The position numbers were made by a program, and so were the translations under genes. Positions 15,599-42,946 of a stretch of DNA of 45,403 nt are shown piece by piece. Origin of the DNA: a virus. The stretch's first letter is position 1, and the number at the start of each line of letters is the position of its first letter. The notes beneath the pieces were generated by a model. It saw only the letters and a list, made by a program, of their open reading frames with translations. It made no database searches and had not been told where the DNA came from. The DNA lies in IMG/VR virus record IMGVR_UViG_3300031857_000376, positions 1 to 45,403 of that record; one strand, written 5' to 3'.

Positions 15599-15608
15599 GA
15601 GAATATAA

Positions 15609-24398: not shown

Positions 24399-24399
24399 T

Positions 24400-24922: not shown

Positions 24923-24951
24923 GTTACTAGTATTACGCTACCTTAGCCACA

Positions 24952-25711: not shown

Positions 25712-25713
25712 CT

Positions 25714-25899: not shown

Positions 25900-26401
25900 T
25901 CATTTTCCTCCTGATTGTTCTCTTAGCCTTCCATACAAGCTTCTTTGCATACTTAGGCGAACAACTTAATATAGCAGATATTTCTACGTAAGACAACCCA
26001 TCGTATTCTTTTAACAACAATGCTCTACGTTGCTTGTTAGGCAATGTGTCACAGATAACAGTTACACCCTCTATTTTCTGCTTAACTGCTAACAAGGATT
26101 CAGGGGTGACTACATCTACCATCTCAACGTCTGTTTTAAGGCTGTTAAACGGCTGTCTGAGGCACTTTCTATTAGCGATGGTACAGAGCCATGTGTATAG
26201 CTGACTATCGCCTTTAAACGCCCCTAATCCCCTGTATGCATCTAGCAATACATCCTGAGTTATTTCTTCTGCTTGTGCGTCATCATCCACCCTCCTACGT
26301 ATGAATCTGTATATACGTTGTCTATACATTGACACTAGGGTGGCGTAAGCCTTCTCACTGCCCCCTAATGCCTCTGCGATAAGCTCTTTATCAGATTTCA
26401 C
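25886..26401 (-). CDS. ECF-type RNA polymerase sigma factor
   Basis: 171 aa from GTG 26401, overlapping the reductase stop by 11 bases. Only regions 2 and 4 are present, as in ECF (group 4) sigma factors. Region 2 at about 15-83: AYATLVSMYRQRIYRFIRRRVD, AEEITQDVLLDAYRGLGAFKG, YTWLCTIANRKCL (core binding and -10 recognition). A linker follows, then region 4 at about 115-166: LPNKQRRALLLKEYDGLSYVEISAILSCSPKYAKKLVWKAKRTIRRK, a helix-turn-helix for the -35 element. It should bind host core polymerase. Since the phage has no polymerase of its own, it is the best candidate for switching on late genes at the paired elements at 9272 and 42947. No clear anti-sigma factor is visible. Confidence 0.9.
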   Translation of the reverse strand: MKSDKELIAEALGGSEKAYATLVSMYRQRIYRFIRRRVDDDAQAEEITQDVLLDAYRGLGAFKGDSQLYTWLCTIANRKCLRQPFNSLKTDVEMVDVVTPESLLAVKQKIEGVTVICDTLPNKQRRALLLKEYDGLSYVEISAILSCSPKYAKKLVWKAKRTIRRKMNEQQ

Positions 26402-28283: not shown

Positions 28284-28417
28284 TAATCATCCACCTTATC
28301 TTCGTTAAAAATTGCTACTTCTACAATACCTAGATATACACATAAGTATACACCCGGCCCCGCATTAATCTCAAATCCAAATGCCAGTCCACCCATCCAT
28401 CTAAACGCTAGTGACAT
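28283..28417 (-). CDS. Very small hydrophobic protein upstream of nrdJ
   Basis: 44 aa from ATG 28417 with GGAGATAG upstream. MSLAFRWMGGLAFGFEINAGP, then GVYLCVYLGIVEVAIFNEDKVDD, is amphipathic and beta-like, perhaps membrane-associated. The TAA overlaps the nrdJ ATG, giving translational coupling. No family recognised. Confidence 0.55.
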   Translation of the reverse strand: MSLAFRWMGGLAFGFEINAGPGVYLCVYLGIVEVAIFNEDKVDD

Positions 28418-28583
28418 GTTCTATCTCCATATTGTTTTCTTCCAACATCCTCATATTAAATAAGATTAGTTTAGCATCGTCACTCAACATCTTATAGAAC
28501 AAAGGGCCATATTTACCTGAGCATACTACCTCATCGAATGCTTTAATCGTGTGGTGTAACCACGCTTCTTCCTCGTTTTGCAT
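28401..28583 (-). CDS. Small acidic helical protein, unknown
   Basis: 60 aa beginning inside the HNH gene's 3' end (41-base overlap). MQNEEEAWLHHTIKAFDEVV, then KMLSDDAKLILFNMRMLEENN, is helical and acidic. The 3' end overlaps the next small gene by 17 bases. No family recognised; it could be a small regulator of a neighbour. Confidence 0.5.
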   Translation of the reverse strand: MQNEEEAWLHHTIKAFDEVVCSGKYGPLFYKMLSDDAKLILFNMRMLEENNMEIEHVTSV

Positions 28584-28935
28584 CTATCTTTTCTCCTGCT
28601 GTTTTCTTTTTATGACATGTGGAACACAATACCTGTAGATTATAACTCTCACAGAACAATCTGTCAATGTATACATCCCAAGACACAAAACCAGTAGTGG
28701 GGTCAACTACTGGATTAACATGGTCTACTTGAACATCTTTAGCTACGTGGTGCTTCTTACATGCAGCACACTTATAGTGCATTGCTTGCTTACCTGTCTT
28801 TTTATTGATCTTCTTACCTACAAATGCTTCTTTCAATGTAATCCACTTAGGAGGCCATCTACGCATACCACCTCGTAATGTAGAAGTAATGAAGCTACGA
28901 TAGCGACCTTCTGTCCACTCACCACCATTTCTCAC
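28543..28935 (-). CDS. HNH endonuclease (phage type, with zinc Cys pairs)
   Basis: 130 aa from a GTG start overlapping the upstream TGA. N-terminal part GEWTEGRYRSFITSTLRGGMRRWPPKW is typical of a phage HNH subfamily. HNH core: CAAC pair (about 75-78), VQVDHVNPVVD (the D-H pair), then NLQVLCSTCHKKKT with the second Cys pair and the final His. It may cut host DNA or act in recombination; free-standing HNH genes in early phage regions can also be homing elements. Nothing indicates a disrupted target gene. Confidence 0.85.
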   Translation of the reverse strand: MRNGGEWTEGRYRSFITSTLRGGMRRWPPKWITLKEAFVGKKINKKTGKQAMHYKCAACKKHHVAKDVQVDHVNPVVDPTTGFVSWDVYIDRLFCESYNLQVLCSTCHKKKTAGEKIDAKRGRSVVTPHD

Positions 28936-29078
28936 AACCTAGCTTCCATATATAAACCTACATTACCAAGGGCATAACCAATGAATGCTATACCTAATCC
29001 TGTCTTACCTGTTACTAGTAACTGAACAGCTACTATTGTGTACACAACACCTATCATTGCAATAAGCCAACTAGCCAT
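28932..29078 (-). CDS. Small two-segment membrane protein
   Basis: 48 aa: MASWLIAMIGVVYTIVAVQL and TGLGIAFIGYALGNVGLYMEARL form two hydrophobic stretches separated by LVTGK. Ribosome site GGAGAAGAAC precedes the ATG. Its TGA overlaps the HNH GTG. An exact GTTACTAGTAAC (29011-29022) sits in the middle and reads LLVT. Function unknown; such proteins are common early phage membrane peptides. Confidence 0.6.
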   Translation of the reverse strand: MASWLIAMIGVVYTIVAVQLLVTGKTGLGIAFIGYALGNVGLYMEARL

Positions 29079-29409
29079 TGTTCTTCTCCTTCAGCTTTTC
29101 CTCTGCCCACCACACTGCTGATTGAAAAGCCTGTTCAGTCACCCAAGATTCTTTCCAACCCTGTGCAATCTCCTCATCCGTCAGCCCTACCCATGTGCGC
29201 TGTGGCATCTGAAAACAGAACCCAGTAGGTCGCACATCTGCTTCTCGTCCAGCAGTGCCGTTGCCTGAATAAGCCACAGGCTCTTGCTCTGGCTGTGCCA
29301 AGGCTTCTTTGATGGCGGTGATGGCTTCCAAGGTTCTTGGATGTGCTTCGTCCTCATGGTAGGCGTGTAACAACGCATCAAGCACCAACTTTAATTCTTC
29401 TTGTGTCAT
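29071..29409 (-). CDS. Conserved phage protein with a repeat-prone Trp-rich C-terminus
   Basis: 112 aa. N-terminal helix MTQEELKLVLDALLHAYHED, then ITAIKEALAQPEQEPVAYSG, then WVGLTDEEIAQGWKESWVTE and FQSAVWWAEEKLKEKN. The ALAQPEQEPVA and TWVGLTDEEI phrases are frequent in phage and prophage proteins of proteobacteria, with no established function. ATGA overlap with the gene before it. Confidence 0.7.
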   Translation of the reverse strand: MTQEELKLVLDALLHAYHEDEAHPRTLEAITAIKEALAQPEQEPVAYSGNGTAGREADVRPTGFCFQMPQRTWVGLTDEEIAQGWKESWVTEQAFQSAVWWAEEKLKEKNNG

Positions 29410-29501
29410 ACAGGTGCATCCTCAAAGTTATCAGGATTAAACTTAGGTGGCTTGTCATTCTTAGGTGGTTGCAATGGTTGTGTTGGGAAAGGCCAAGTCA
29501 T
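29406..29501 (-). CDS. Proline-rich micro-protein
   Basis: 31 aa: MTWPFPTQPLQPPKNDKPPK, ending FNPDNFEDAPV. Ribosome site AAGGAATAAT directly before the ATG, start placed immediately after thyX, and an ATGA overlap with the next gene all argue that it is translated. Disordered; function unknown. Confidence 0.55.
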   Translation of the reverse strand: MTWPFPTQPLQPPKNDKPPKFNPDNFEDAPV

Positions 29502-29502
29502 A

Positions 29503-30123
29503 TTATTCCTTAAACGTGGATGGAAAATGTGTTACTAATAACGCTTTGCATTGTTCTGCTATCTCTCTGTGTTCTTTCTGTGTAGCCTTGTCACATCGTA
29601 TGTCTACATAGTGTATCCAGCTACGCAAATTACCATTCATGTACATGCGAGTAGGAGTTAAACCTTCAGGCAACACTTTACGTGCAACCTCTTTGGCTAT
29701 ACCCTTACTCAACGCTGTATGATAGACATACTCTGCATCATCAGCAACACGTTGTTGCATTGCTTGCCACCAAGACTTAAGCTGTATATCTGTAGTTTCA
29801 AGACTATTCTGTCTGTTAGTTACATCTTGCATACGTGCTTCACTTGTTTCCATAGATACAGCTACTTCTGCATAACGTTGACTAAACTCTTGAAAACTAA
29901 AACTACGATGACGCAATATCTGCCTAGCTATGTCTCGTGTAGTATTGATCTCTACACACATATTAACCATCTCAAACGGACTCCAATGATTGTTATCTTT
30001 GAGATATTTAATTAGCTTAGGTGCTGTCTCAGTGTTGTCCTGATTGTCAGGGTTGCTAACCCTAGCCATGTAAGCAATAAGCTCATCACCGCTAGGGGTA
30101 GCCCATACAAGGCTTACTCGCAT
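29503..30123 (-). CDS. thyX: Flavin-dependent thymidylate synthase
   Basis: 206 aa, usual length for the family. Converts dUMP to dTMP with methylene-tetrahydrofolate, FAD and NADPH. The signature RHR-x2-S is present as RHRSFS (71-76), followed by SQRYAE (81-86), and the FEMVNM helix is upstream. It supplies dTMP alongside the reductase in the same operon. The start overlaps the previous stop by ten bases. Confidence 0.95.
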   Translation of the reverse strand: MRVSLVWATPSGDELIAYMARVSNPDNQDNTETAPKLIKYLKDNNHWSPFEMVNMCVEINTTRDIARQILRHRSFSFQEFSQRYAEVAVSMETSEARMQDVTNRQNSLETTDIQLKSWWQAMQQRVADDAEYVYHTALSKGIAKEVARKVLPEGLTPTRMYMNGNLRSWIHYVDIRCDKATQKEHREIAEQCKALLVTHFPSTFKE

Positions 30124-30368
30124 TTAGCTTTGCATTTCTTTTTCTTAACAGGTTCTTCTTCTTCTTCAGAATACTTTTCCCACAACTCATCTGCGTTAAG
30201 TGGCTTACCACTATCTGTATGTGGGTCAAGGTGAATTGTATAACCAAATGCACCGCTGAGTAAATTAGCAAATTGTTGTGCTATTTCACCATATGTAACC
30301 CACTCATCAAGATCACCTTGCACTGTGTGTGTAACACCATATTCTTCAAGTTCAAATTTAAATTTCAT
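30114..30368 (-). CDS. Small acidic/basic-tailed protein, unknown
   Basis: 84 aa from ATG 30368, preceded by AAAGGGAAC; the open frame extends further upstream but lacks a ribosome site there. MKFKFELEEYGVTHTVQGDLDEWVTYGEIAQQFANLLSGAFGYTI, then an acidic run and a KKKKCKAKCE tail with two Cys. Looks like a small alpha/beta domain with a charged tail. No family recognised. Confidence 0.65.
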   Translation of the reverse strand: MKFKFELEEYGVTHTVQGDLDEWVTYGEIAQQFANLLSGAFGYTIHLDPHTDSGKPLNADELWEKYSEEEEEPVKKKKCKAKCE

Positions 30369-30519
30369 TTTGTTCCCTTTGTTTAAAATCTTGCAACTGC
30401 TTGTTCCACTCTTTAGTCTGTGCGTTATTAATAACGACTCGCTTCCTAGTCTTCCCAATCTTCTCCAGTTCCAAGGTCTGCTTCGTCTTCTTCAATTGTG
30501 TCTTCTTCTGTGTAGTCAT
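30358..30519 (-). CDS. Possible small basic protein overlapping its upstream neighbour
   Basis: 53 aa from ATG 30519. MTTQKKTQLKKTKQTLELEK and TRKRVVINNAQTKEWNKQLQ give a basic helical chain. The first 74 bases overlap the 3' end of the gene at 30446-30679 in another frame. It fills the gap between that stop (30446) and the gene starting at 30368, which favours translation of at least its 3' part. The near-palindrome CGTTATTAATAACG (30423-30436) lies inside. Uncertain. Confidence 0.4.
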   Translation of the reverse strand: MTTQKKTQLKKTKQTLELEKIGKTRKRVVINNAQTKEWNKQLQDFKQREQNEI

Positions 30520-30679
30520 GTGTCGGATAAAAGTTAGTGTAGTTTGCAACAAGTACATCAGGTAATAGTTTGATTATGTCTTCAACTGATACACCTAACG
30601 CAATTATCAATTCAACAGGGTCGTCAAAATTATCCTCCACAAATCTAGTCACTGCAAGAAGTTTATCCGAGTAGTTCAT
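30446..30679 (-). CDS. Acidic protein, unknown
   Basis: 77 aa from ATG 30679, preceded by GGGAGAAAAT; an ATG 21 bases upstream is less well placed. Helical first half (MNYSDKLLAVTRFVEDNFDD, VEDIIKLLPDVLVANY) and a strongly acidic tail (TEEDTIEEDEADLGTGEDWED). Acidic tails of this kind occur in DNA mimics and in ssDNA-binding proteins, but no family is visible. Confidence 0.6.
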   Translation of the reverse strand: MNYSDKLLAVTRFVEDNFDDPVELIIALGVSVEDIIKLLPDVLVANYTNFYPTHDYTEEDTIEEDEADLGTGEDWED

Positions 30680-31433
30680 ATTTTCTCCCAAGATATTCAA
30701 TGCTCAAGAACATCTCATCGAAATGACCATCCTCAACCTCATTCAACACAACCAAACCTCGCCAGTGCCTATTGCTTAGCTTATCCATATAACTTTCATC
30801 ATGTAGATAATAGCTACCCGCAATTATAGCACATACTGGTTTACCATCTGCTCGTTTACTGTAGGCAACTTGCTTACCTTGTTGATGACCAGCAACACAA
30901 GACATATGTAGCTTATTAATAATAGTAGCCGCACTACTCGCAGGTCGTCCCATCGCCCCAACAGGCCAATAATGATTAAAGCCAACACCATTAATAAACA
31001 CAGGATGTAGAAACTCATGCACTTCCCAATCGTCTTCGTAACACAAATCTTTAGTTGATATAAGCCCCTCTAGTGTAGGATTGTTGTTCACAGCACGATC
31101 AATGCGGTTCTCATGGTTGCCCATAAGCATCACCATACGTGGTTTATAAACCTTCTCCTTGTTCTTCTTCTGCTTATTCTGCATCTCTTTGATTGGTGCA
31201 AGAAGCTTAGCCATAGCTTCTTTAGCTACGTCTACATCTTTCTTATATCGCAATCCCTCAAAGTATTTGCTACCAACTTTATCATGTGTAGATAGGCTAG
31301 GCATATCTGCGAAGTCACCTAAGTTAATCACAACATCAGGTTTATACTCACAGATAGCCTTACCTGCCCATACCAGATGGTCAGTAGGAACACCTTCCTT
31401 AATTTGACAATCAGGTATTACTAGTATTCTCAT
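30663..31433 (-). CDS. Calcineurin-like metallophosphoesterase
   Basis: 256 aa. Metal-binding motifs in order: PDCQ (7-10) in place of the usual DxH, GDFAD (39-43), GNHE (105-108) and AGHQQG (181-186). The fold hydrolyses phosphoesters; in phages members may act on nucleotides, polynucleotides or protein phosphates. The position between replication genes and thyX suggests nucleic-acid or nucleotide turnover. A near copy of the TTACTAGTAA word lies at the gene's start and encodes ILVI. Confidence 0.85.
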   Translation of the reverse strand: MRILVIPDCQIKEGVPTDHLVWAGKAICEYKPDVVINLGDFADMPSLSTHDKVGSKYFEGLRYKKDVDVAKEAMAKLLAPIKEMQNKQKKNKEKVYKPRMVMLMGNHENRIDRAVNNNPTLEGLISTKDLCYEDDWEVHEFLHPVFINGVGFNHYWPVGAMGRPASSAATIINKLHMSCVAGHQQGKQVAYSKRADGKPVCAIIAGSYYLHDESYMDKLSNRHWRGLVVLNEVEDGHFDEMFLSIEYLGRKYELLG

Positions 31434-31693
31434 TTCTTTTTACTTTTAACTGCTTTACGCATTGCATTAATCTCGTCAACCAATACACCCATACGCTTAT
31501 CAAAAGCAATTGCGTCTTTGTCGTCACCACTTGAAATCCACTCACCAATGTGAATAGTGTATCGTCCATCATGGATAGCAAGACGTGTATCACCATCGTG
31601 GTCTACTTGCCATTGAATGTACGAGTTAGTGTCTGTACCTAAAAACTTACGTGCAGACACAGCTTTATTTCGTTTACCAAAAGTTCCAAACAT
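31430..31693 (-). CDS. Small protein, unknown
   Basis: 87 aa overlapping both neighbours by 1-4 bases. A beta-rich first half (SYIQWQVDHDGDTRLAIHDGRYTIHIGEW) and a basic helical end (FDKRMGVLVDEINAMRKAVKSKKK). No family recognised. Its tight coupling to the nuclease gene upstream suggests a shared process. Confidence 0.65.
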   Translation of the reverse strand: MFGTFGKRNKAVSARKFLGTDTNSYIQWQVDHDGDTRLAIHDGRYTIHIGEWISSGDDKDAIAFDKRMGVLVDEINAMRKAVKSKKK

Positions 31694-32517
31694 TATACAA
31701 TCTCCATTACACGTGGAATATCCACAACATCTACCAAAAACTCTGGCCCATGACTGTACAAGAATGTACGCATCTCAGGCCAGCACTCACCTTTAAAAGA
31801 ACAATAGCTACATGCTGTACATAGTTTTTTGTTCTTACTGGTCTTACTTTGTGCCACTGGTGGGAGTCTAGGAATCTCACCAATGTTACTAGTAACTGTC
31901 TCAACTGCAAAGTCTGCTTGTTGTGCAAACAAACCTCTGTCTACTTGAATAGGGTAGTAGTTAACGTGCCCTAACTCTTTTTGTATAGTAAGAAAACCAG
32001 CAACATCAATATTAAGAGCAGCAGCATATCCGTTTAATTGTTGATAATAGCCGAATGGGTCATCTACTAAACCTCCCTTGAATTTTTCTTCTGAGTATTT
32101 AGTAACACTCTTAACGTCTATCACAACACCATCAATGATGGCATCAATGCGTCCTCTTACATACCAATTGTTACCTATGTCATAGATAACACGTTCCTGT
32201 TTTTTCTCTACAGTGTGACCAGCGTTCTCTGACACATTGAGTACCAGTTCCTCCAGTATATCACCATAAAAGAATTTTAGCAACAAATTACCGTCAGGTT
32301 TAGTTGCTATCTCAGGTGCATTATACTTATACCACAGTTGACGTGGGCATGGTGTGCCTACCTCACTGAAATATAACACACCTTCCTCACGCTTACTATC
32401 CCGTGGTGTAAACCACTTGTCGTAACTAACTTTTACTTCTGTGTTACTAATAGCATTTGGTGTGCTACCACTAATCACAGAGTAAATGTCAGGCACTAGC
32501 GTGTCAATTGTTTTCAT
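31693..32517 (-). CDS. PD-(D/E)xK exonuclease, Cas4/RecB-like with Cys cluster
   Basis: 274 aa. Core motif GRIDAIIDGVVIDVKSV: D125 with D134-V-K136, the PD-(D/E)xK metal and catalytic set, followed by QQLNGYAAAL (a QxxxY-type helix at about 159-168). C57 (TPCPRQ) together with C233, C236, C239 and C245 has the layout of an iron-sulfur cluster as in Cas4 and AddB-type nucleases. Probably a 5' or 3' exonuclease in recombination, host DNA breakdown or replication. It lies directly after the OB-fold-like protein and DNA polymerase genes. Confidence 0.85.
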   Translation of the reverse strand: MKTIDTLVPDIYSVISGSTPNAISNTEVKVSYDKWFTPRDSKREEGVLYFSEVGTPCPRQLWYKYNAPEIATKPDGNLLLKFFYGDILEELVLNVSENAGHTVEKKQERVIYDIGNNWYVRGRIDAIIDGVVIDVKSVTKYSEEKFKGGLVDDPFGYYQQLNGYAAALNIDVAGFLTIQKELGHVNYYPIQVDRGLFAQQADFAVETVTSNIGEIPRLPPVAQSKTSKNKKLCTACSYCSFKGECWPEMRTFLYSHGPEFLVDVVDIPRVMEIV

Positions 32518-33020
32518 TCATCAGCCTTGTCTTCAGACATAGCGATAGCTTGTGCCATGTCTAAATCACCGCATGAGTAGGCTTCAAACATACGTGCTAC
32601 CTGAATCACCTCAATTGCTAATGATTCCCAGTTAGCTTTATCAGTGGGCTTAACGCTATCTACAATGAGTTTAGTTGCATTGCTAATAGAGTTTTGTCGA
32701 ACAATGGCACGATCACCATGCAGGGCAGGGATAGGAAACACCTTTGGAGAGCCATAGGAGGGCTTAGAAGGGGCTGTAGAAGCTGTGCTAGGGGGAGGAG
32801 TACCACTACCCTTAACCAAGAGCCGTACAGAGGCTAAATCCACGTTCTTACCATAGGTGTTTTCGGTATATTGAAAGTCTACCTCATCCCCAATGGAGAA
32901 TGTAGGCTTCTTGAACCCATAACTAAAGCGTTCACCATTAGCTGTAACATTAAATGCTTTCTTAGGGCCAAACTTTGTATTAACTTCTTTCTCAGTGATG
33001 TTCTCAATAACGTAACTCAT
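32514..33020 (-). CDS. Putative OB-fold single-stranded DNA-binding protein
   Basis: 168 aa. The N-terminal 75 residues are beta-rich (VIENITEKEVNTKFGPKKAFNVTANGERFSYGFKKPTFSIGDEVDFQY), an OB-like alternation. A Pro/Ser/Thr linker (about 73-95) and a helical C-terminal half ending acidic (MSEDKADE) follow. An acidic tail after a linker is the layout of SSB proteins. The slot between polymerase and exonuclease fits. Assignment is by layout, not by a motif. Confidence 0.55.
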   Translation of the reverse strand: MSYVIENITEKEVNTKFGPKKAFNVTANGERFSYGFKKPTFSIGDEVDFQYTENTYGKNVDLASVRLLVKGSGTPPPSTASTAPSKPSYGSPKVFPIPALHGDRAIVRQNSISNATKLIVDSVKPTDKANWESLAIEVIQVARMFEAYSCGDLDMAQAIAMSEDKADE

Positions 33021-34927
33021 TTGATCTCCAATGCTGTTTTATCTTGCCAAGTTGTACCAACGTCTACGCCAACCTTTAGTTGACATGGAAAGTCGATGTT
33101 AAAGTATTGTTTAAGATACAATGGTGCTTTCTCCAAGGTATCTTTAGCTATACAAGCTGCATCGTAACACACATCTTCTTCTGTGTCAAGTAGTACGCTG
33201 TCATGCACAGTCATTACTAATAATGCTTTGCGTGATAGGCCAGCTTCTTCTAGCTTACGTAACAAGATACCTACCATCATAGGCACTACGTCACCTGTTG
33301 CAAAGCCCTGAATAGGCCAGTTCTTAAGTTCTGTAGGACTGAATGTTAGTTCTCCTGCTTTGTAGTCACTAGCGTATTTCTTGAATACGTAATGTCTACC
33401 TGTTGGACTAGGGTGATAGTAGGTATATTGCGGCCCACTAACACCTTCTTCATAACTGATTACTGCTTTGTCATTTGCTTCCTTTACAATTGATTCATGG
33501 TATTGCTTCACTCCTTTGTACCTAGTGTAGAACGTACTAATAAACTTCTTAGCTGTTGCTCTATCACAGCCACTCTGCGCCATAAGAGTTGTAACTCCAC
33601 CTCCGTAAACGAGCAAGAAGCTAAATCGTTTAAAGGGCTTTCGTTCAGCATCTGTAGGATAGCGTCCGTACATCCCGTTGTACAGTTCTCTGTGCATATC
33701 TCTGCCATTGTTAATATCCTCAATGAGTTGTTTATCGTCAGCTAGATATGCCAGAGCCACCATCTCTAGTTGTGAATAGTCAAGCTCTAATATCTTACCA
33801 TTAGGAAACCTACTGATGTATGCACGTTTAACGTCACCTGCATCAGTTTGATTCTGTAGGTTAGGATTAGTAGCAGACAATCGACCTGTCTTTGTAGAGC
33901 AATGATTAAGATTAGGATAGATATTATTATCAGGGAATCTTAAGTCATTAAGACCCTCATAATAGGTTTCTTTAATCTTCTTTGCATTACGCATTATTAG
34001 TAACTGCTTAGCAAGCAAGTCACCCTTTGATGACAGACCTTTAAGCACCGCATCATCGACACTGTAATAACCACCTTTACCTATCTCGGTAGTTGGTTTA
34101 TAGTCCCCTTCAATTATGTTTATCTTCTCTACGTTCTTATACTTAGGCTTGCCATTCTTATATTCACCAACAAGTTCACGCACTACATATTTCTCTTGCC
34201 CTCCAAAAAAGTATAATGACAATTGCTTAGGACTCATGTAGTCTAAATCACCCGCAAGTGATTTAATAATCCCAGCAGTACGATCAATTAACTTACCATA
34301 TGAAGCACATGACTTGTTTACATAGACCCAGTCTACGTACATGCCATTACGATTCATCTCAATGGTGGCACGTAATGCATCCATCTGTACCATCATCAAG
34401 GGTATCAACCCTAGTTCTTCTGCTTCTAACCATTGCTTCTTAAAGATAGCTTCTGTGTTAAGCACATCATCACGTAGGTATTTATCAAGTTCTGCTACTG
34501 GTATGTCTTCTGTACGTACACCTGCTTTCCAATACTCCTTAATCTTGTCATCCTTCAGTGCATGTTCACCAATGTATTCAGCAGTTAACTCGTCAAGACT
34601 TGCATATAAATGTCTCTGTCCTGATAGAATGTATGCCGCAAGTTGTGTATCCCATATACGGGGCAGAATGTTACTAGTAAGACGATAGATATATAGTAAG
34701 TCAAATTTAATGTTGTGACCAACTACTAATGATGCCTTATCTATTTCTTCTAATACAATATCTGCATCCACACCTGTACTACAGTAGTGGGTAGTTACAC
34801 GTGACGCACCTACGCACATAAAACCAGCGGCAATAATTTTATTACCTATCCACATAGGGTTAGCCTTGTTGTTACCAACAGGACAATCCATTGTAGTTTC
34901 TAGATCAAGTACTAGCGTGTTGCCCAT
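33017..34927 (-). CDS. polA: DNA polymerase, family A, with 3'-5' exonuclease domain
   Basis: 636 aa. Exonuclease: D8-x-E10 (VLDLETT), GHNIKFDLLYIY (Exo II) and YLRDD (Exo III, Y-x3-D), all intact. Polymerase: motif A LDYSQLE with D383, motif B R429-x3-K433-x3-F437-x3-Y441, and motif C HDS at 575-577. The residue equivalent to E. coli Pol I 762 is Phe (F437), while the usual Gly after it is Leu. Replicates the phage genome with the helicase and primase upstream. One exact TTACTAGTAA copy lies inside. Confidence 0.95.
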   Translation of the reverse strand: MGNTLVLDLETTMDCPVGNNKANPMWIGNKIIAAGFMCVGASRVTTHYCSTGVDADIVLEEIDKASLVVGHNIKFDLLYIYRLTSNILPRIWDTQLAAYILSGQRHLYASLDELTAEYIGEHALKDDKIKEYWKAGVRTEDIPVAELDKYLRDDVLNTEAIFKKQWLEAEELGLIPLMMVQMDALRATIEMNRNGMYVDWVYVNKSCASYGKLIDRTAGIIKSLAGDLDYMSPKQLSLYFFGGQEKYVVRELVGEYKNGKPKYKNVEKINIIEGDYKPTTEIGKGGYYSVDDAVLKGLSSKGDLLAKQLLIMRNAKKIKETYYEGLNDLRFPDNNIYPNLNHCSTKTGRLSATNPNLQNQTDAGDVKRAYISRFPNGKILELDYSQLEMVALAYLADDKQLIEDINNGRDMHRELYNGMYGRYPTDAERKPFKRFSFLLVYGGGVTTLMAQSGCDRATAKKFISTFYTRYKGVKQYHESIVKEANDKAVISYEEGVSGPQYTYYHPSPTGRHYVFKKYASDYKAGELTFSPTELKNWPIQGFATGDVVPMMVGILLRKLEEAGLSRKALLVMTVHDSVLLDTEEDVCYDAACIAKDTLEKAPLYLKQYFNIDFPCQLKVGVDVGTTWQDKTALEIK

Positions 34928-36177
34928 TTTGATTTATACCTCGCCTTTGATGGTTCAATCTCTACTTCAAAGCACCCGTGTCTATGTGCTTCTAACGTGT
35001 CTTTACCTCCGAATAGTTTGTTCTTAGGCACGTGAATAAAACGTTGTAAATCCATTGCTGGTTCGTTACTCTTACCAATGGTGATGATTGCATCTGCTTC
35101 TCCAATTTTGTCAGTCTTACTACCACGTAGTTGATTCATTTGAATCCACTTCTCACCCTCACCTGTACCATCTACCTGCGATATGGCTATCACTGGACAA
35201 TATTCTTTAGCCAAGTCTCTAGCCCACTCATACAGCTTACCAATGCGTAAGTCATCACGTGACTCGTTACTAAACCCATGCACCTTATCTAGTTGGTCAA
35301 AGATAATAAGACCGGGTTTAAACTCGGCAAACAACGTGCTAATTTTATTTACACTCTTGATGCCACTATCATCATCTAACACTAAGAATCGTTCACCACC
35401 GTTACTAGTAAACTCTGTCTCATACACACTAGGGTTAGCTAACAAGTCACCAGTAGTAACACCATTGAATGCCTGTATCACACGCATCATAACCTTGGTA
35501 CTTGATTCCTCATTGTTAATCCATATGACATGCTCATCAGGTTTCAATTGACTCATCATATAGCTTGCTTCACTAGCTACGAATGTAGTCTTACCACTCT
35601 CAGGTCTAGCCGCAACAATGATGAAGTCACCCTTACGTAGTGGGCCTAGTGCTACGTTCAACTCTTTAAGTCTCCAGTCCAATCCTCCTGTAGCAACAAT
35701 CTTAGATAGATAAGATAGGCTAGGGCTAACGAACACATCTTCTTTTTCAACACTTGAGCCAATCTCTTTCTTGTAGTCGTTGAGCAATGGTTCAATGGAT
35801 GTAAGCTCACCACCAGCACCTGTGCCAATCTTCATGCATACATCGTAGATACGTGTGGCATAGTCAACCTCAATTAACTTAGCCAGAATATCCTTAACGA
35901 TGGGTGGTTCATCTACCATACTTTCACCTAACCACATGAATGCTTGTTCATATAGCGCAGGGTCTTTTATCTTCTTACCACGTACAATGTTAAAGAATGT
36001 ATGAAACTCATTTATATCTACCTTAGTTCTACTAGGATAGTTATCCCAATATTCACCTAATACATTAAATATATCTAATGTAATAGTTGATACATTGTGT
36101 TTCTTTACATGGTCTTTAAATCTATTATACGTATCTTTCTCACTAACTACTGTTAGTAAATCTATATCGTATGACAT
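34912..36177 (-). CDS. Replicative DNA helicase, DnaB/T7 gp4-helicase type
   Basis: 421 aa. A helical N-terminal region (1-150) precedes the RecA-like motor: Walker A ARPESGKTT (190-198), a conserved E in INNEESS (about 220-226), Walker B GLIIFDQLDK (289-298, D294) and the DNA-loop and H4-like region ISQVDGTGEGEKW...QLRGSKTDKIGEADAI. It unwinds DNA at the fork and partners the separate primase gene next door. It overlaps the polymerase start by 16 bases and abuts the primase stop. Confidence 0.92.
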   Translation of the reverse strand: MSYDIDLLTVVSEKDTYNRFKDHVKKHNVSTITLDIFNVLGEYWDNYPSRTKVDINEFHTFFNIVRGKKIKDPALYEQAFMWLGESMVDEPPIVKDILAKLIEVDYATRIYDVCMKIGTGAGGELTSIEPLLNDYKKEIGSSVEKEDVFVSPSLSYLSKIVATGGLDWRLKELNVALGPLRKGDFIIVAARPESGKTTFVASEASYMMSQLKPDEHVIWINNEESSTKVMMRVIQAFNGVTTGDLLANPSVYETEFTSNGGERFLVLDDDSGIKSVNKISTLFAEFKPGLIIFDQLDKVHGFSNESRDDLRIGKLYEWARDLAKEYCPVIAISQVDGTGEGEKWIQMNQLRGSKTDKIGEADAIITIGKSNEPAMDLQRFIHVPKNKLFGGKDTLEAHRHGCFEVEIEPSKARYKSKWATR

Positions 36178-37004
36178 TACAGTTCCATTTCTTTTAAGCT
36201 TTCAATGTTAATCTCTTTTGCTTGAACAAAGTTCATACTAGTAACAACTTTGAATGTTGGACTAAGTTCTCTGAACAAAGTCATAGCACCAGCATGACCC
36301 GCTTCATCATCGTCTAACCATATCACAACTCTATCGTATGTGTCAAGCATTGTTTGTGTTATGTGTGATTTATTTAACTTAGTGCCTAACAAACACAATG
36401 ATGCATACCCTGCCATACTTAATTTATAACTACTGAGTAAATCTTCTACAATAACTAATGTTTTATTACATGCACCAGTAAGCAACCACTGTATATTATT
36501 ATCTTTATTATATGTCAAATACTTTGGTTGTTTATCATACCTACGTACTTGATAACCTACACACATGCGATCATACCATATAGGTAATATAATACCCTCT
36601 TTATATTCTCTAATTCTATAGTCAGAACATTCTTGTCCTGTAAAACCATACTGAGCCAGCCATAATTGCCCCCGTATATCAAAGTCATCATAGTGTGCTC
36701 TTGCTCTTGCATGTATCTCAGAAAAATTTTTTACATCAGCAGGTACAAGAATTGCTTTTGCACCCATTAACTTCATGCGTGATGTAGTTTCTCTGTGTCT
36801 ATAATAACCACTATCACCACAGTTAAAACAGTGCCACAGATATGCATCGTCTACATGCTTAACTCCGAATCGTTTACGTGTGTCCACACCCATAGAACAA
36901 GTAGCATGATTGTATTTAGCAGAATGTCCTTCTTCAAGTTCTTCATAATCAGGTGCATTACTAGTAAGCTCTTTCAATGCTGCATGTCCATACAGTGTTG
37001 TCAT
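36177..37004 (-). CDS. DNA primase, zinc-binding and TOPRIM domains
   Basis: 275 aa. A zinc-ribbon-like N-terminus has H33/C36 (YNHATC) and C59/C62 (WHCFNC). The TOPRIM domain has VIVEDLLSSYKL (E187) and VVIWLDDDEAGHAGA (D231, D233). It synthesises RNA primers for lagging-strand synthesis. In T7 this and the helicase are one protein; here they are two adjoining genes. Contains a near and an exact copy of the TTACTAGTAA word. Confidence 0.9.
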   Translation of the reverse strand: MTTLYGHAALKELTSNAPDYEELEEGHSAKYNHATCSMGVDTRKRFGVKHVDDAYLWHCFNCGDSGYYRHRETTSRMKLMGAKAILVPADVKNFSEIHARARAHYDDFDIRGQLWLAQYGFTGQECSDYRIREYKEGIILPIWYDRMCVGYQVRRYDKQPKYLTYNKDNNIQWLLTGACNKTLVIVEDLLSSYKLSMAGYASLCLLGTKLNKSHITQTMLDTYDRVVIWLDDDEAGHAGAMTLFRELSPTFKVVTSMNFVQAKEINIESLKEMEL

Positions 37005-37671: not shown

Positions 37672-38721
37672 TCACTCACCAAATACTTTGACGTAGAATT
37701 CTTGCACAGATTTTACATCATCAGGGGTAAGCTTCTCAGTGAATGCAACCTGCAATGCATACTTAGCATCGTAGCGTTGGCACTTACGACCCCAATTAAT
37801 CAGGGTACGTGGTGACATAGTAAGACCAATCTTACCTGTGTCATACGCATTACGCACAAGACCTGCAACACGCACCATCTTAGTAGCAACATCTTTAGCA
37901 ATGTTACTCTTACTAGTAATGATGGCTATCTCGTGCTTAGCATCAAGGTATGCAAGACGGATAGTGTTAGTGAATCGGTCAATGGTTGCACTGTTCTGGA
38001 TACCTACACCAGAGAACGCACCTGTAGTGTCACCTTGTCCAACAGTGTTACCTGCAAACACCAGTCGGAAGTGTGCATCAGGTACGATGGTACGATCAGC
38101 AGACGTACCGGGCTTCTCTTTGAGATAGAGATAACCACCATCTTCTAACAAGTTCTGCATACCCATAGCAATCTGAGGGGGCATCAGTTCCCACTCATCT
38201 ACAAGGCACACAGCACCATACTTACATGCTTCAGTGATAGCACCATCTTTCCACTCAGTACCTACACCTACACTAGCAGTGAGCATACCGAACAATGACG
38301 CACTCTCAATGTCACCTGACATATTGATACGAATGAACGGGCGGTTAAGCTTAGCACACACATACTTAACTAGCGATGACTTACCGCTACCTGTAGGGCC
38401 TGTAAGCAAGCTCTTATCGTTGTCTTCGATACCTGCTACTAGTAATGCTGCTTCATTACGTTGCACCACATAGTCAGCGTCAGCAGTAGGTACAAGACGT
38501 GCTACCTCTGCATCTGCATTGTCAGCCAATACAGTGACAGCGAAGTCACCGAAGTTAGGTACATAGCCGAACACCTTACTGAATAGCTTCTGACCATCTG
38601 ACAATGTTACTGTCTTCTCTACCTTGTCAGTAGGGGTTAGTGTAACCTCGGGTGTAGAAGGTACTTTACCCAAGTGTGCTGCGATAGCCTTAGCTACTTT
38701 GTCGTTGATTTCTACTGCCAT
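37672..38721 (-). CDS. MoxR/CobS-like AAA+ ATPase
   Basis: 349 aa. Walker A GPTGSGKSS (108-116), Walker B VCLVDEWE (171-178, D175/E176), sensor-1 FAGNTVGQGDTTG (222-234), arginine-finger-type DRF (248-250) and sensor-2 region MSPRTLINWGRKC. The FAGNTVGxGDTTGxFxGVGxQNxAxIDRF stretch is close to CobS, the ATPase subunit of aerobic cobaltochelatase, and to MoxR ATPases, which remodel partner proteins through a VWA co-factor. That VWA partner is encoded one base upstream. CobS-like genes are known in several phages without an established role. Two copies of the TTACTAGTAA word (one exact) lie inside. Confidence 0.9.
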   Translation of the reverse strand: MAVEINDKVAKAIAAHLGKVPSTPEVTLTPTDKVEKTVTLSDGQKLFSKVFGYVPNFGDFAVTVLADNADAEVARLVPTADADYVVQRNEAALLVAGIEDNDKSLLTGPTGSGKSSLVKYVCAKLNRPFIRINMSGDIESASLFGMLTASVGVGTEWKDGAITEACKYGAVCLVDEWELMPPQIAMGMQNLLEDGGYLYLKEKPGTSADRTIVPDAHFRLVFAGNTVGQGDTTGAFSGVGIQNSATIDRFTNTIRLAYLDAKHEIAIITSKSNIAKDVATKMVRVAGLVRNAYDTGKIGLTMSPRTLINWGRKCQRYDAKYALQVAFTEKLTPDDVKSVQEFYVKVFGE

Positions 38722-38722
38722 G

Positions 38723-40447
38723 TTAAATACTCCTGTCTAAGATTGAAAGAATTGTGCCTGAAAGATTAGCAATGTCTTTGACTACTTCATGCTTCTTATA
38801 AAACAAACGAACATTATCGTCACAAATACCAATACCATATATGTCTACCCCACTAGCTTCAATGTCTTTAACTACACGTGCTGTGTACGCTGTAATGTCA
38901 CCATGTGAATCACGCCCTGCGGGACTACCATCGGACAATACTAGTAACACCTTACGTTGTTCACGACGCATACCTAACACATACGACGCATACGCTAACG
39001 CATCACCATCTGTATTCTCCCACAGACAGCCACTAGCCACAGCAAAACGTTTGACTAGATCAGGTGTAGATACACGCTCACCGAAGTCATTGAACACCCA
39101 TATCAAAGGGTCGTCATTACCTTCTGAGTTGGTGAAACCTAGCACATTGAATGCTATGTTAAGGGGCTTCAATGCTTCTGCCATAGCACCAGCACCAGCA
39201 CATGCCATCTCATACTTCTTACCTGACATACTACCACTACAGTCTACAAGCAATGTAACAGCCGTGTCAAGTGTGTCAGATACGATACGCTTACGGAACA
39301 CACGGGTACTAGCTTCAGTGTTACCTGACAATAGTTTATGCAAACTACCTGTGTGTAACTTACCACGTTTCAATCCGTACTCGTACCTGTCCCTGCTACG
39401 TGTCTGCAATCGCATACGCAACTGATTAGCTAATGGCTTAGCATTACTAGTAATGTATTTGGATACATTATCTGCTTTAAAATAACCCTCACTACGACCC
39501 TTAACTGCACGATGTAACTCAGGGAATCGCACGATAATGTACTCATCCTTATGCGGTATGGTATATGCACCCTTGGTATCGGCTTTGTCTAGCATAAGGT
39601 GAATACCTGTGCGACTAGGCTTATGCTCATGCCCAATGGCTTTGATAAGCTTCTCTACATCTACAAGTCTATCTTCCTCATCACCCTTACCCTCACCTGC
39701 TTTCTCACCACCATCTGCTTCACCATCACCCTTACCCTTAGCTTTACCCTTACCACCCTCACCCTTAGTTTTACCTTCCTCAGTGTAGTCTTCAGGTTTA
39801 GCGTCAAACAAGTCAATCAAGATACGCTTAGCTAGATCATACACACGTTCACCCACATCTAGCCCTGTGTCACAACGCAATACTAGTAACTCATCGGTAT
39901 ATTTCTCAAGCTTGTGTAGCTTGTCAATACCATCATCATCTAGCATACTACCCATAACATCACGTGTCTCAGCAGCATTACCTATCCATGTACGTAGTGC
40001 TGCATCCCACACAAACAGAGGTAACGTCAATCGTTGTTGCTCTGATAAGTCTGTATCTGTAGACTTCATACGCTTAACTATGTCATCTGCATACAACACC
40101 CAGTAGTTGTTACTAGTAATGGCATCACCTGCATACTGACTATCGTTGATAAAGTCAATACGATGGTCTTCGATAAGGTTATTAATCAAAGCCAATAACC
40201 CTGTAGGTCGGTGCTTGTTAAGCACCTCAAAGTCGCTGTAACTGATATGGCTTGTCTCATGCTTTACATAGTAACGCATACGTGTCAGCCACTCAGCGGG
40301 AGTAGTACTAGTAATGGATGGCAACCACATCATGCGCCCATCTGTACGTGGTGTACTTTCGGGTTTGTCCCACACAACTTTGATTCCACTATTCCTAGCA
40401 CAACCTGCGACGTAAGTCTCAAAGTTGACTACATCTAGATAATTCAT
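38723..40447 (-). CDS. CobT-like VWA protein with HExxH metallopeptidase-like N-terminus
   Basis: 574 aa, partner of the adjoining AAA+ ATPase. N-terminal part: H63-E-T-S-H67, followed 26 residues later by E93 in NLIEDHRID, the HExxH...NxxED layout of gluzincin-like domains found in some VWA proteins. Residues 223-259 are a Gly/Lys/Glu-rich flexible linker. C-terminal VWA domain from about 395: MIDAS DCSGS (402-406), LGFTNSEGND, ENTDGDAL and LSDGSPAGRDS, then GVDIYGIGI, all in CobT order. CobT pairs with CobS in cobalt insertion, but similar pairs act as metal-centre or complex remodellers. Contains five copies of the TTACTAGTAA word (two exact), the densest of any gene. Confidence 0.88.
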   Translation of the reverse strand: MNYLDVVNFETYVAGCARNSGIKVVWDKPESTPRTDGRMMWLPSITSTTPAEWLTRMRYYVKHETSHISYSDFEVLNKHRPTGLLALINNLIEDHRIDFINDSQYAGDAITSNNYWVLYADDIVKRMKSTDTDLSEQQRLTLPLFVWDAALRTWIGNAAETRDVMGSMLDDDGIDKLHKLEKYTDELLVLRCDTGLDVGERVYDLAKRILIDLFDAKPEDYTEEGKTKGEGGKGKAKGKGDGEADGGEKAGEGKGDEEDRLVDVEKLIKAIGHEHKPSRTGIHLMLDKADTKGAYTIPHKDEYIIVRFPELHRAVKGRSEGYFKADNVSKYITSNAKPLANQLRMRLQTRSRDRYEYGLKRGKLHTGSLHKLLSGNTEASTRVFRKRIVSDTLDTAVTLLVDCSGSMSGKKYEMACAGAGAMAEALKPLNIAFNVLGFTNSEGNDDPLIWVFNDFGERVSTPDLVKRFAVASGCLWENTDGDALAYASYVLGMRREQRKVLLVLSDGSPAGRDSHGDITAYTARVVKDIEASGVDIYGIGICDDNVRLFYKKHEVVKDIANLSGTILSILDRSI

Positions 40448-40626
40448 TAATTCACCTTTGTAACATCAGGATACATATAGGTAACGAATATACGATGATA
40501 CTCGCTATCTAACCAGTTTTCCACTGCTTCGTCAGCGGGTGTTTTCTCAAAGAATTCTTCTATTTCCTGTATAACTGCATTAGCTTCAGCAAATGATTTG
40601 AATTCCCTTATTCTATTCGTTGTCAT
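40447..40626 (-). CDS. Small protein, unknown
   Basis: 59 aa from ATG 40626, preceded by GGGAGG at good spacing; an upstream in-frame ATG lacks a ribosome site. TTNRIREFKSFAEANAVIQEIEEFFEKTPADEAV, then EYHRIFVTYMYPDVTKVN. Helix followed by strands. The stop overlaps the start of the CobT-like gene (TTAATG), so the two are coupled. No family recognised. Confidence 0.65.
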   Translation of the reverse strand: MTTNRIREFKSFAEANAVIQEIEEFFEKTPADEAVENWLDSEYHRIFVTYMYPDVTKVN

Positions 40627-40699
40627 TCCAGACCTCCCAAAAGAACCACCCCACATATGTACATGCTAAAAATATTACTACAGTGTCGATAATATCCAT
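40613..40699 (-). CDS. Micro-protein with one membrane segment
   Basis: 28 aa: MDIIDTVVIFLACTYVGWFF, then WEVWNDNE. One hydrophobic helix with a short acidic tail. It overlaps the next gene by 14 bases. The start codon is embedded in the complement of the 12-mer TGATGACAGACC (40699-40710). No strong ribosome site apart from AAGGGTCTG; plausible but not certain. Confidence 0.45.
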   Translation of the reverse strand: MDIIDTVVIFLACTYVGWFFWEVWNDNE

Positions 40700-40716
40700 G
40701 ATGACAGACCCTTATG

Positions 40717-40818
40717 TTAATTTTTGCACCAATAGAATGAGAACCCAAAACGAAACACCTTAACAAAATGTAAACCACCTACTTTTTTATAGGAAAGTCT
40801 TTTCTTAGTGAGCTTCAT
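40717..40818 (-). CDS. Basic micro-protein
   Basis: 33 aa from ATG 40818 with AAAGGGTAAT upstream: MKLTKKRLSYKKVGGLHFVK, then VFRFGFSFYWCKN. Very basic and aromatic. It fills the gap between two small membrane-protein genes and starts one base before the end of the gene upstream. Function unknown. Confidence 0.5.
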   Translation of the reverse strand: MKLTKKRLSYKKVGGLHFVKVFRFGFSFYWCKN

Positions 40819-40819
40819 A

Positions 40820-40984
40820 TTACCCTTTCTTTGATAATACATCAGATACTTGCATACCCAACCAAAAACCACACGTTACTAGTAACGTTGTTACTGCATA
40901 ATACCCGTTTATGGTATACATGCAATAGGTAATTACCAGCGAGATAGCTACAGATAGTAGCATGTTAGCTAACGTATACATCAT
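40820..40984 (-). CDS. Small two-segment membrane protein
   Basis: 54 aa from ATG 40984, preceded by TGGAGATAAA. Two hydrophobic stretches: LANMLLSVAISLVITYCMYTI and YAVTTLLVTCGFWLGMQVSDV. The 16-base perfect palindrome ACGTTACTAGTAACGT (40873-40888) sits within and reads TLLVTC. Function unknown. Confidence 0.65.
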   Translation of the reverse strand: MMYTLANMLLSVAISLVITYCMYTINGYYAVTTLLVTCGFWLGMQVSDVLSKKG

Positions 40985-40985
40985 T

Positions 40986-41267
40986 TTATCTCCAAGTGTT
41001 ATGTCGTTCAGCGACGTGTTCCAAACCATCATATTCTTCGATGTACCAATTCACACCATCAGGTATTTCCACAATTTTTAAATCAGCAAAGTGACCATTA
41101 ACAGCAGTCCCTTGTTCTTCTATCATCGCAACAAAAACAGGGCAATCTCTAGGTATGTCACCTTCAAAAAAATACTCATCTGTGATACCTTTACGACCTT
41201 TGTATTCATCCAATGCGGCATCAGATAAACTGAAACCACCAAAACAAGCATTAATCACAATTTTCAT
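40986..41267 (-). CDS. Conserved phage protein (MKIVINxCFGGFxLS family), unknown
   Basis: 93 aa with a strong ribosome site (CGGAGGTAAC). The opening MKIVINACFGGFSLSDAALD, then RDCPVFVAMIEEQGTAVNGHFADLKIVEIPDGVNWYIEEYDGLEHVAE, is a pattern widespread among tailed phages. It has no established activity. Two exact TTACTAGTAA copies lie just upstream. Confidence 0.85.
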   Translation of the reverse strand: MKIVINACFGGFSLSDAALDEYKGRKGITDEYFFEGDIPRDCPVFVAMIEEQGTAVNGHFADLKIVEIPDGVNWYIEEYDGLEHVAERHNTWR

Positions 41268-41345
41268 GTTACCTCCGTTGAAAGTTACTAGTAATGACCC
41301 TGATTCAAGACCATTACTAGTAACAAGGGCTTACGCCCCTGCTAC

Positions 41346-41861
41346 TTATTGCACCGCTTGATAATCTTGCACCATGCGATGAGCCAGTGCTGCATATGCA
41401 TCAGCGATAGTTGACATTTGCTCACGTGTAAACTGCTCACGTGTGTCGCTATCGTATTTCTTACCTGCCTGTTCGATGAATGCCATCATACGGTCGAAGT
41501 CAGTCTTCGCTTCATTCAATTCTGATTTACCCTTGGGCATTGGATTGCCATTGTCGTCATTCTCAAAGCCGCCACCCTCATCACGTTTCCACACGTCAAC
41601 GTTATTAGTAATGGCTTTGGATACCACACACTTAGCAGAGCGCAGACTATTCTTTTCTTCTTTTGATAACTCTCGGATATTGTTCAGGGTTTCCACTAGA
41701 TTTTTGTGTGTAGATTCTAACCCTTCCACATTTCTAGGTGTATATGGATAGCATGTGGCACGTACATAATTTGCCCATATGCCTTCCCCTGCGCTACGTG
41801 ATGCATCCTTCGCATCCTTTGATGTAGACAATGCATTGCGTAATTCGTTTTCGTATGACAT
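41346..41861 (-). CDS. First gene of the leftward early operon, unknown
   Basis: 171 aa with ribosome site AAAGGGAAC. Helical and charged: MSYENELRNALSTSKDAKDA, STHKNLVETLNNIRELSKEEKNSL, FDRMMAFIEQAGKKYDSDTREQFTREQMSTIADAYAALAHRMVQDYQ. As the promoter-proximal gene it should be the earliest and most abundant early product, so a host-takeover or DNA-binding role would not surprise. Nothing diagnostic is visible. It could be tested as the binder of the TTACTAGTAA sites. Confidence 0.75.
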   Translation of the reverse strand: MSYENELRNALSTSKDAKDASRSAGEGIWANYVRATCYPYTPRNVEGLESTHKNLVETLNNIRELSKEEKNSLRSAKCVVSKAITNNVDVWKRDEGGGFENDDNGNPMPKGKSELNEAKTDFDRMMAFIEQAGKKYDSDTREQFTREQMSTIADAYAALAHRMVQDYQAVQ

Positions 41862-41902
41862 GATGTTCCCTTTTACAGTTTGATTTGATTTACTAAGGCT
41901 TG

Positions 41903-41931
41903 GTTATAGCACACGTTACTAGTAACATGCA
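41903..41931 (-). promoter_or_regulatory. Putative early promoter with the palindrome in its spacer
   Basis: Leftward extended -10 TGCTATAAC, with the -10 hexamer at 41908-41903. The preceding 17-base spacer starts with TTACTAGTAA (41916-41925). The -35 position (TGCATG) is weak. About 40 bases then separate it from the ATG of the first early gene. The palindrome between -35 and -10 is where an operator would act. Confidence 0.45.
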
Positions 41932-42173
41932 CTATAGAAAACCCTAGGTTTTCTTGGTAACATATCCCCTTTGCCATCAGGGTTTTACCTGTGGTTTTCA
42001 CCACCGCACTGCTCAGGAACTCGTATGGACAGTGTGCATGCCATAGTCAAAGCTTTCCTACACGTTTTATAGAGGGTACGTATTCCTCGTTTGATGCGAT
42101 GCATGTTAACATGTAAACCTTACACGAAACTTACATCCATCCGGTTAACTCCGATCAATCAACCGATGCACCG

Positions 42174-42202
42174 ATATTAACAGCGATTTAAAACCTTGTC
42201 AA
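42174..42202 (-). promoter_or_regulatory. Strong sigma70-type early promoter, leftward
   Basis: On the minus strand, TTGACA (42202-42197), a 17-base spacer and TAATAT (42179-42174): perfect -35, optimal spacing and a fair -10. It points toward the early operon, whose first gene starts about 300 bases away, leaving a long leader with several hairpins (41937-41953, 41991-42004). Confidence 0.65.
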
Positions 42203-42223
42203 CCGTAGGGCTATTCACCCTGT

Positions 42224-42252
42224 TAGTTACTAGTAATGAATCATTGCGTCAA
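42224..42252 (-). promoter_or_regulatory. Second sigma70-like early promoter overlapped by the palindrome
   Basis: On the minus strand, TTGACG (42252-42247), a 17-base spacer and TAACTA (42229-42224). The exact palindrome TTACTAGTAA at 42227-42236 covers the spacer and the edge of the -10. It shares the block CGGTTGAC with the promoter 50 bases downstream. Confidence 0.45.
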
Positions 42253-42946
42253 CCGATGCCTTAAATGTAAACGATGAACCTTACAGCAACCTTACAACTA
42301 AAATAACCTAGTAGATTTAAGGGATATTATGGCACAATTATTGCTACGTGCGTGGGCGCACATGTATATAATATTAGAATGTTTTGTATATCTACGTACT
42401 ACTGTATGTATATACAGTGTTAATAAGCTGTGGATAACTATATATATCTTATTGATAATGCCTTATCATTATATAACTATATGATGTTACTAGTAATATT
42501 ATATAAATATATATACTATAACTATATATACTACCCGGTTATATTATATAAAGAGATATAATATACTTATATACTATACTACTACATATACTATACTTAT
42601 ATATACTATACTTATATATATTATTATAGTATATTATATATATATGTATATTGTAGTACTATTTCAGTACTTCTTCTTCTATTTTTAGAACTTTTGTACT
42701 ATGGCTGACCCACTAAGGGGGGTAGGGGGGTTGGTTTTATATTGCAATGATGCTCAAAATTACCTCATAGAAATTAACTTGTTCAGATGTTTTAATCTAA
42801 TTCATTTAAAATGGGAAGTTCCCTCCCACCCACCACATCCTATTTAAAACGATTTTAAGGGGGGTAGAAGGCTAGGAAAACAAAAAGGCTATGGTAGGGT
42901 AGCCTAACAGGTATAAAAGGGGCTTAAAACGCCTTTAAATGAATCT

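What the first reader, a model, noticed from the sequence alone, without database searches (positions are those of the whole stretch)
41903..42252. The palindrome overlaps predicted early promoters
One exact copy (41916-41925) begins the spacer of an extended -10 promoter. Another (42227-42236) covers the spacer and -10 edge of TTGACG-N17-TAACTA. A protein bound there would block host polymerase. This suggests the palindromes began as operators of the early promoters and that the dispersed copies serve the same protein.
Basis: inference. Interest (0 to 1): 0.62.

Follow-up and report, generated by a model that had tools for sequence, protein, structure and literature searches.

The report
Dispersed phage palindromes and matching protein
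A group of freshwater and other environmental phages carries about 20-40 copies of a short mirror-image DNA word strewn mostly inside genes, thickest at the genome end with the early genes, and a previously unrecognised small phage protein occurs in exactly those phages, so the words are probably its docking sites across the genome and not switches of two early promoters as first proposed.

Summary
The letters are as described, but the promoters are not convincing. TTACTAGTAA occurs 20 times in the window (0.2 expected). The overlap with promoter-like sequence is at chance (5 of 20 copies; 20% expected). Promoter 2 has a 2/6 -10 and is not conserved. The 'extended -10' of promoter 1 is one arm of a strongly covarying RNA hairpin whose tip is the palindrome. 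The best-conserved early promoter (42202-42174, minus) survives in relatives that have no palindrome beside it.

The palindrome is nevertheless real. Relatives carry 20-40 copies each. Synonymous shuffles give 2.6 coding copies where the window has 23. Positions inside genes persist at about 58% protein identity. Density falls smoothly from the early end through both transcription arms.

The first early gene (41346-41861) founds an undescribed protein family. Every genome examined with the family has a dispersed palindrome (TTACTAGTAA, GTTCTTAAGAAC, GCTCTTAAGAGC or GTTCTAAn4TTAGAAC); seven relatives without it have none. A search with the protein alone found four more genomes, and all four had one.

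Best reading: genome-wide binding sites of this phage protein, analogous to but distinct from mycobacteriophage stoperators. Binding is inferred, not shown.

The parts
41916..41925 (.). palindrome TTACTAGTAA, leader copy nearest the first early gene; tip of a conserved RNA hairpin
41893..41947 (-). conserved RNA hairpin in the 5' leader of the first early gene (outer stem CUAGGGUUU/AAGCCUUAG, inner covarying stem of 12-16 bp centred on 41920/41921, tip UUA-CUAG-UAA); its 3' arm contains the 'extended -10' of the finding
42227..42236 (.). palindrome TTACTAGTAA, second leader copy; 24-25 bp upstream of the -35 of the conserved promoter in the close relatives
42487..42496 (.). palindrome TTACTAGTAA, third leader copy, next to the AT-rich tract
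42174..42202 (-). best-conserved early promoter candidate TTGACA-N17-TAATAT with TG; not overlapped by a palindrome
41346..41861 (-). first early gene, 171 aa, founder of the 'RSAKSV...GKS' family; proposed palindrome-binding protein
37910..42496 (.). densest part of the array: exact copies at 37910, 39444, 40110, 40876, 41285, 41314, 41916, 42227, 42487 plus one-mismatch copies
4628..36967 (.). remaining exact copies at 4628, 15093, 16809, 21488, 27007, 27676, 29012, 31886, 34671, 35402, 36958, nearly all inside genes
38723..40447 (-). CobT-like vWA gene with five TACTAGTA copies, all at positions shared with relatives

Best explanation
The palindromes are DNA binding sites, spread over the whole phage genome, for a phage-encoded early protein of an undescribed family (window 41346-41861). 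The protein is proposed to bind TTACTAGTAA as a dimer (inferred). In related lineages diverged members of the family go with other palindromes (GTTCTTAAGAAC, GCTCTTAAGAGC, GTTCTAAn4TTAGAAC). Made first from the early leader, it would fill sites that are densest at the early end and thin out towards the other end. There it most likely organises the phage DNA and damps transcription across gene bodies, including its own operon, much as stoperator repressors do; this step is inference. Promoter blocking would be at most a by-product at the leader copies. The 41916 copy is at the same time the tip of an RNA hairpin in the mRNA leader of that gene, so autocontrol could also act on the RNA (inference).
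For: Non-chance: 20 exact copies against 0.21 expected.

Selection on DNA: 23 coding 8-mers against 2.6 (maximum 6) in synonymous-codon shuffles; same in five relatives; enriched in both arms.

Positional conservation: in CobT, relative L095 (60% aa identity) shares all 4 of its copies with the window.

Co-occurrence: the first early gene is found in the TACTAGTA genomes with a complete early leader and in no other zobellvirid tested by BLAST. Outgroups with different palindromes carry remote homologues (hhalign E 1.8e-6). A profile made only from outgroup members retrieves the window family as nearly all its further hits. Seven family-negative genomes show no enrichment of these motifs.

Independent prediction: four records found by the protein alone all have a dispersed palindrome as top dyad.

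Polar gradient in two motif lineages: pooled counts by ninths of the genome 80, 50, 45, 42, 31, 24, 19, 10, 8.

Both AF2 models show the same helix-helix-hairpin order around the conserved RSAKSV helix.
Against: No binding data. The predicted fold matches no solved structure, so DNA binding by the protein is inferred from co-occurrence alone. Family and sites share ancestry, so the lineages are not independent. Other clade-specific early genes (40447-40656, 30446-30700, the sigma factor) also track the TACTAGTA clade, although they were not detected in the outgroups. A purely transcriptional (roadblock) role predicts a step at the early/late boundary, not the smooth gradient seen. Recognition-helix sequence does not obviously explain the motif changes.
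Confidence: 0.58

Rival explanations
1. Early-promoter operators: the palindromes repress (or activate) host-polymerase initiation at early promoters, and the dispersed copies are secondary.
For: Three copies lie in the leader and are conserved in close relatives. One lies 54-65 bp upstream of the ATG in about 20 genomes. The 42227 copy keeps a fixed 24-25 bp distance to the -35 of the conserved promoter, centre about -64, in close relatives.
Against: Overlap with promoter-like strings is at chance. The claimed promoters are not conserved. The conserved promoter occurs without an adjacent palindrome in L142 and L113. Most copies are deep inside genes and are independently conserved there.
Confidence: 0.1
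2. Stoperator-like roadblocks only: the protein stops elongating polymerase at the sites to switch off the early operon once replication proteins are made.
For: Site density is about four times higher in early than in late genes in the window; dispersed intragenic sites; the protein gene is first in the early operon.
Against: The density decline is smooth across the early/late boundary and continues within the late arm (late-arm mean relative position 0.35, p about 1e-8 pooled over related genomes). Sites are symmetric, so not oriented with transcription.
Confidence: 0.25
3. Chromosome organiser or segregation/entry system: the sites nucleate a nucleoprotein structure at the end that is expressed, replicated or injected first.
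For: Polar gradient in two motif lineages; the leader contains DnaA-box-like and AT-rich sequence; spacing is fairly even in some genomes (L089 CV 0.46).
Against: No ParA/ParB-type gene recognised among the proteins scanned; entry order and origin are not known for this phage; spacing is not more even than random in the window itself.
Confidence: 0.28
4. Sites of a host DNA-binding protein: motif differences reflect different hosts.
For: Lineage-specific motifs could track hosts; hosts are unknown.
Against: Tight co-occurrence with one phage protein family, including four genomes found by the protein alone; relatives without the family show no dispersed palindrome.
Confidence: 0.08
5. RNA or codon-level feature (hairpins, tandem stops, codon bias).
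For: The 41916 copy is the tip of a covarying RNA hairpin.
Against: Other copies are not flanked by pairing arms beyond the background. Synonymous shuffles exclude codon bias. Two reading phases are used.
Confidence: 0.03

Closest known systems
Stoperators of Cluster A mycobacteriophages (L5/Bxb1 Rep repressor)
   Same: 20-40 short sites spread through a phage genome, mostly not at promoters; some in the early promoter region and near the regulator's own gene; related phages have related but different motifs (PMC6550527).
   Different: Stoperators are 13-14 bp, lack dyad symmetry, are bound by a monomer, are oriented with transcription and serve temperate phages. Here the sites are perfect palindromes inside genes, run in a polar gradient, no lysogeny gene was recognised, and the protein family is unrelated to any model tested.
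KorB operators of plasmid RK2 (ParB-family long-range repressor)
   Same: Palindromic dispersed sites, one protein, possible link of silencing and DNA organisation (general knowledge; PMC11790492 abstract seen).
   Different: The window protein has no Pfam, PHROG or PDB match to ParB/KorB; there are many more sites, and they lie in coding sequence.
Zobellviridae / cobaviruses (ICP2, ICBM2, SIO1, MEP401)
   Same: Closest phage relatives by terminase (57% to MEP401) and gene order.
   Different: The seven named members examined lack both the protein family and the dispersed palindrome.
Uncharacterised protein A0A6J5NPK7 (uncultured Caudovirales phage)
   Same: 63% identical member of the 171-aa family.
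   Different: No function assigned.

Membership tests
Mycobacteriophage-type stoperators | about 20-30 sites distributed over the phage genome, most not promoter-associated | tested here: met
   20 exact / 31 eight-base copies, mostly intragenic
Mycobacteriophage-type stoperators | asymmetric 13-14 bp site oriented with transcription | tested here: not met
   perfect 10-bp palindrome; literature feature from PMC6550527
Mycobacteriophage-type stoperators | temperate phage with immunity repressor and integrase or parAB | tested here: inconclusive
   no integrase, ParA or repressor among the 20 proteins scanned, but not every ORF was scanned
Mycobacteriophage-type stoperators | protein bound at the sites stops elongating RNA polymerase | not testable with these tools
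   needs in vitro transcription
Classical operators of sigma70 early promoters | site overlaps or flanks a genuine promoter, and site and promoter are conserved together | tested here: not met
   overlap at chance; promoters not conserved or conserved without the site
ParB/KorB-type centromere or repressor systems | ParB/KorB-like protein encoded | tested here: not met
   the 171-aa protein has no Pfam, PHROG or PDB match
Window-type RSAKSV family with lineage palindrome | family gene present together with a dispersed, selected palindrome | tested here: met
   all 15 family-positive genomes examined have one and 7 family-negative genomes have none of the three motifs enriched; the motif of G013 is the variant GCTCTTAAGAGC

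The most novel reading that the evidence does not exclude
A previously unknown phage system: a small DNA-binding protein family, present only in phages as far as searched, that marks its own genome with a self-chosen palindrome. Sites are kept by selection inside coding genes, are distributed as a monotonic gradient from the early (probably first-entering or first-replicating) end, and change sequence between lineages together with the protein. It would act as a polar genome-organising or genome-marking system and not as a promoter regulator.
Probability: 0.35. Interest if true: 0.88.

Novelty: new variant of a known kind. Interest (0 to 1): 0.74.

Why it matters
Dispersed non-promoter binding sites in phage genomes are known mainly from temperate actinophages with asymmetric stoperators. 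Here an apparently lytic and widespread podovirus group keeps 20-40 perfect palindromes in coding DNA under clear selection. There is a candidate cognate protein of unknown fold, several lineage-specific site specificities, and a polar density gradient. Protein/site pairs from several lineages make the recognition code and the function (silencing, DNA organisation, entry) directly testable in vitro.

Tried and rejected
Collagen-like GGTCC dyads in VP41s3 and ICP2 looked like analogous palindromes but are tail-fibre repeats clustered in one gene.

Rfam: no match for the leader hairpin.

PDB and viral fold searches: no known fold for either model in the PDB; one same-family viral protein of unknown function.

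Bacterial genomes: none of nine pattern hits encodes a relative. GenBank phages: no tblastn hit for the protein.

Even spacing as a general rule: holds in L089 and L131, weakly in L124, but not in the window.

Literature: no phage paper among the 20 listed of 25 papers containing TTACTAGTAA, no paper for 'dispersed palindrom' with phage, no promoter or palindrome discussion in the cobavirus paper.

Codon bias as the cause: rejected by synonymous shuffles.

Full report
What was checked. The finding says that two copies of a palindrome overlap predicted early promoters. Both copies are exactly where stated. TTACTAGTAA occurs 20 times in the window against 0.21 expected, and no other 10-bp palindrome occurs more than twice. 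The 8-bp core TACTAGTA occurs 31 times.

The promoters. On the minus strand, promoter 2 (TTGACG-17-TAACTA) has a -10 with two matches of six. Promoter 1 is an extended -10 (TGC-TATAAC) without a -35. Such matches cover 28% of 10-bp placements in the leader and 20% in the window, and 5 of the 20 copies fall on one, so the overlap is at chance. The sigma70 scan finds fewer matches here than in shuffled sequence. An alignment of seven related leaders shows the palindromes kept while promoter 2 is lost and promoter 1 is altered or deleted. The promoter that is kept, including its -10 TAATAT, is at 42202..42174 (minus). More distant relatives L142 and L113 keep a similar one (TTGACA-17-TAATAT and TTGACA-17-TACTAT) behind an AGGG-N6-CCCT dyad, with no palindrome beside it.

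The hairpin. The copy at 41916 lies 63 bp before the start codon of the first early gene, and about 20 relatives have a copy 54-65 bp before it. In the transcript it is the tip of a hairpin. On eleven sequences aligned on the tip, 99.2% of the pair cells are standard pairs. Eight of twelve pairs show changes on both sides, no shuffle of 500 reaches this, and many pairs are G-U, which points to RNA. The 'extended -10' is part of the 3' arm. Some relatives (L160, L170) keep the stem with a changed tip, and L086, L089 and L131 keep the palindrome off centre, so the stem and the palindrome are conserved separately. Copies elsewhere are not flanked by pairing arms beyond background, except the AT-rich leader copy at 42487. 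The relatives L100, L095, L101 and L097 lack the hairpin.

The palindrome across relatives. Loci fetched by terminase, CobT-like protein and DNA polymerase show TACTAGTA as the leading palindrome in nearly all early-region loci. Whole records have 20-40 copies, against 0 for the reversed control word. Synonymous-codon shuffling gives 2.6 (at most 6) coding copies where the window has 23, and similar contrasts in five relatives; both arms are enriched over shuffles. In the CobT-like gene, copies stay in the same alignment columns at 56-61% protein identity.

The protein. The first early gene (41346-41861, 171 aa) is found in the TACTAGTA genomes with a complete early leader (about 52-92% identity) and not in the non-TACTAGTA zobellvirids tested by BLAST. 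Outgroup genomes with other dispersed palindromes encode proteins with the same core, R-S-A-K-S-V...K-A...G-K-S/T. Profile-profile comparison gives probability 90% and E 1.8e-6. A profile made only from outgroup members ranks the window family next after itself among all ORFs. A combined profile finds the member in G013. Pairs seen: TTACTAGTAA (window clade, G001, G016), GTTCTAAn4TTAGAAC (G011), GTTCTTAAGAAC (G012, G014) and GCTCTTAAGAGC (G013).

Independent prediction. A search of IMG/VR with the protein alignment alone returned four new records. All four have GTTCTTAAGAAC or its core as a top palindrome. Near-matches number 35-38 in three complete-length records against about 2-3 expected. 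Seven family-negative zobellvirids show no enrichment of any of the three motifs.

Gradient. Measured from the early leader, counts fall by ninths of the genome as 80, 50, 45, 42, 31, 24, 19, 10, 8, pooled over eight genomes of two motif lineages. The fall continues within the late arm, which is transcribed the other way. Several of these genomes are close relatives, so the pooled p-values overstate independence.

Mechanism. Shown: the sites are selected at DNA level, conserved in place, mostly intragenic, polar in density, and co-occur with one protein family. Inferred: the protein binds them, probably as a dimer, and its function is genome-wide (DNA organisation and/or damping of transcription). 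Not supported: that promoter blocking at the two named promoters is the origin of the system. No solved fold resembles the models, so the DNA-binding assignment rests on comparative evidence.

Comparison. Stoperators (PMC6550527) are the nearest functional analogue but are asymmetric, oriented and belong to temperate phages. KorB operators are palindromic and dispersed, but the window protein has no ParB similarity. Membership in either is not claimed.

Noticed in passing
window 41893-41947 (-): Conserved covarying RNA hairpin in the leader of the first early gene, with a possible alternative upstream hairpin (AGAAAACC/GGGUUUUCU; some relatives have GNRA-like loops GAAA, GCAA, GUAA) that competes for the same GGGUUU strand; attenuator-like. 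No Rfam match.
   Followed up: partly
window 42429-42438 and 42400-42660: DnaA-box-like TTATCCACAG (minus strand) beside a long AT-rich TATATA tract; L087 has two such boxes and L097 three. Candidate replication origin.
   Followed up: no
window 42277-42297 and 42118-42137 (-): Two pairs of tandem TGTAAGGTT-like repeats spaced 11 bp (one helical turn), conserved in relatives; possible activator or iteron sites.
   Followed up: no
window 42207-42221: Dyad AGGG-N6-CCCT directly upstream of the conserved early promoter -35, kept in distant relatives L142 and L113; a better operator candidate than the palindrome.
   Followed up: partly
window 25886-26401 (-): ECF-like sigma factor (Sigma70 regions 2 and 4) at the end of the early operon, present in the TACTAGTA clade and not detected in the other zobellvirids tested; candidate late-gene switch.
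   Followed up: no
L136 869-1372 and 2449-2889; L203 15189-15689 and 16768-17304; G019: Two diverged paralogues of the palindrome-associated family in one genome.
   Followed up: partly
window 37672-40447 (-): CobS-like AAA and CobT-like vWA genes lie near the family gene in the family-positive genomes where the region was seen, but also occur in ICP2 and T5S1, which lack the family.
   Followed up: no
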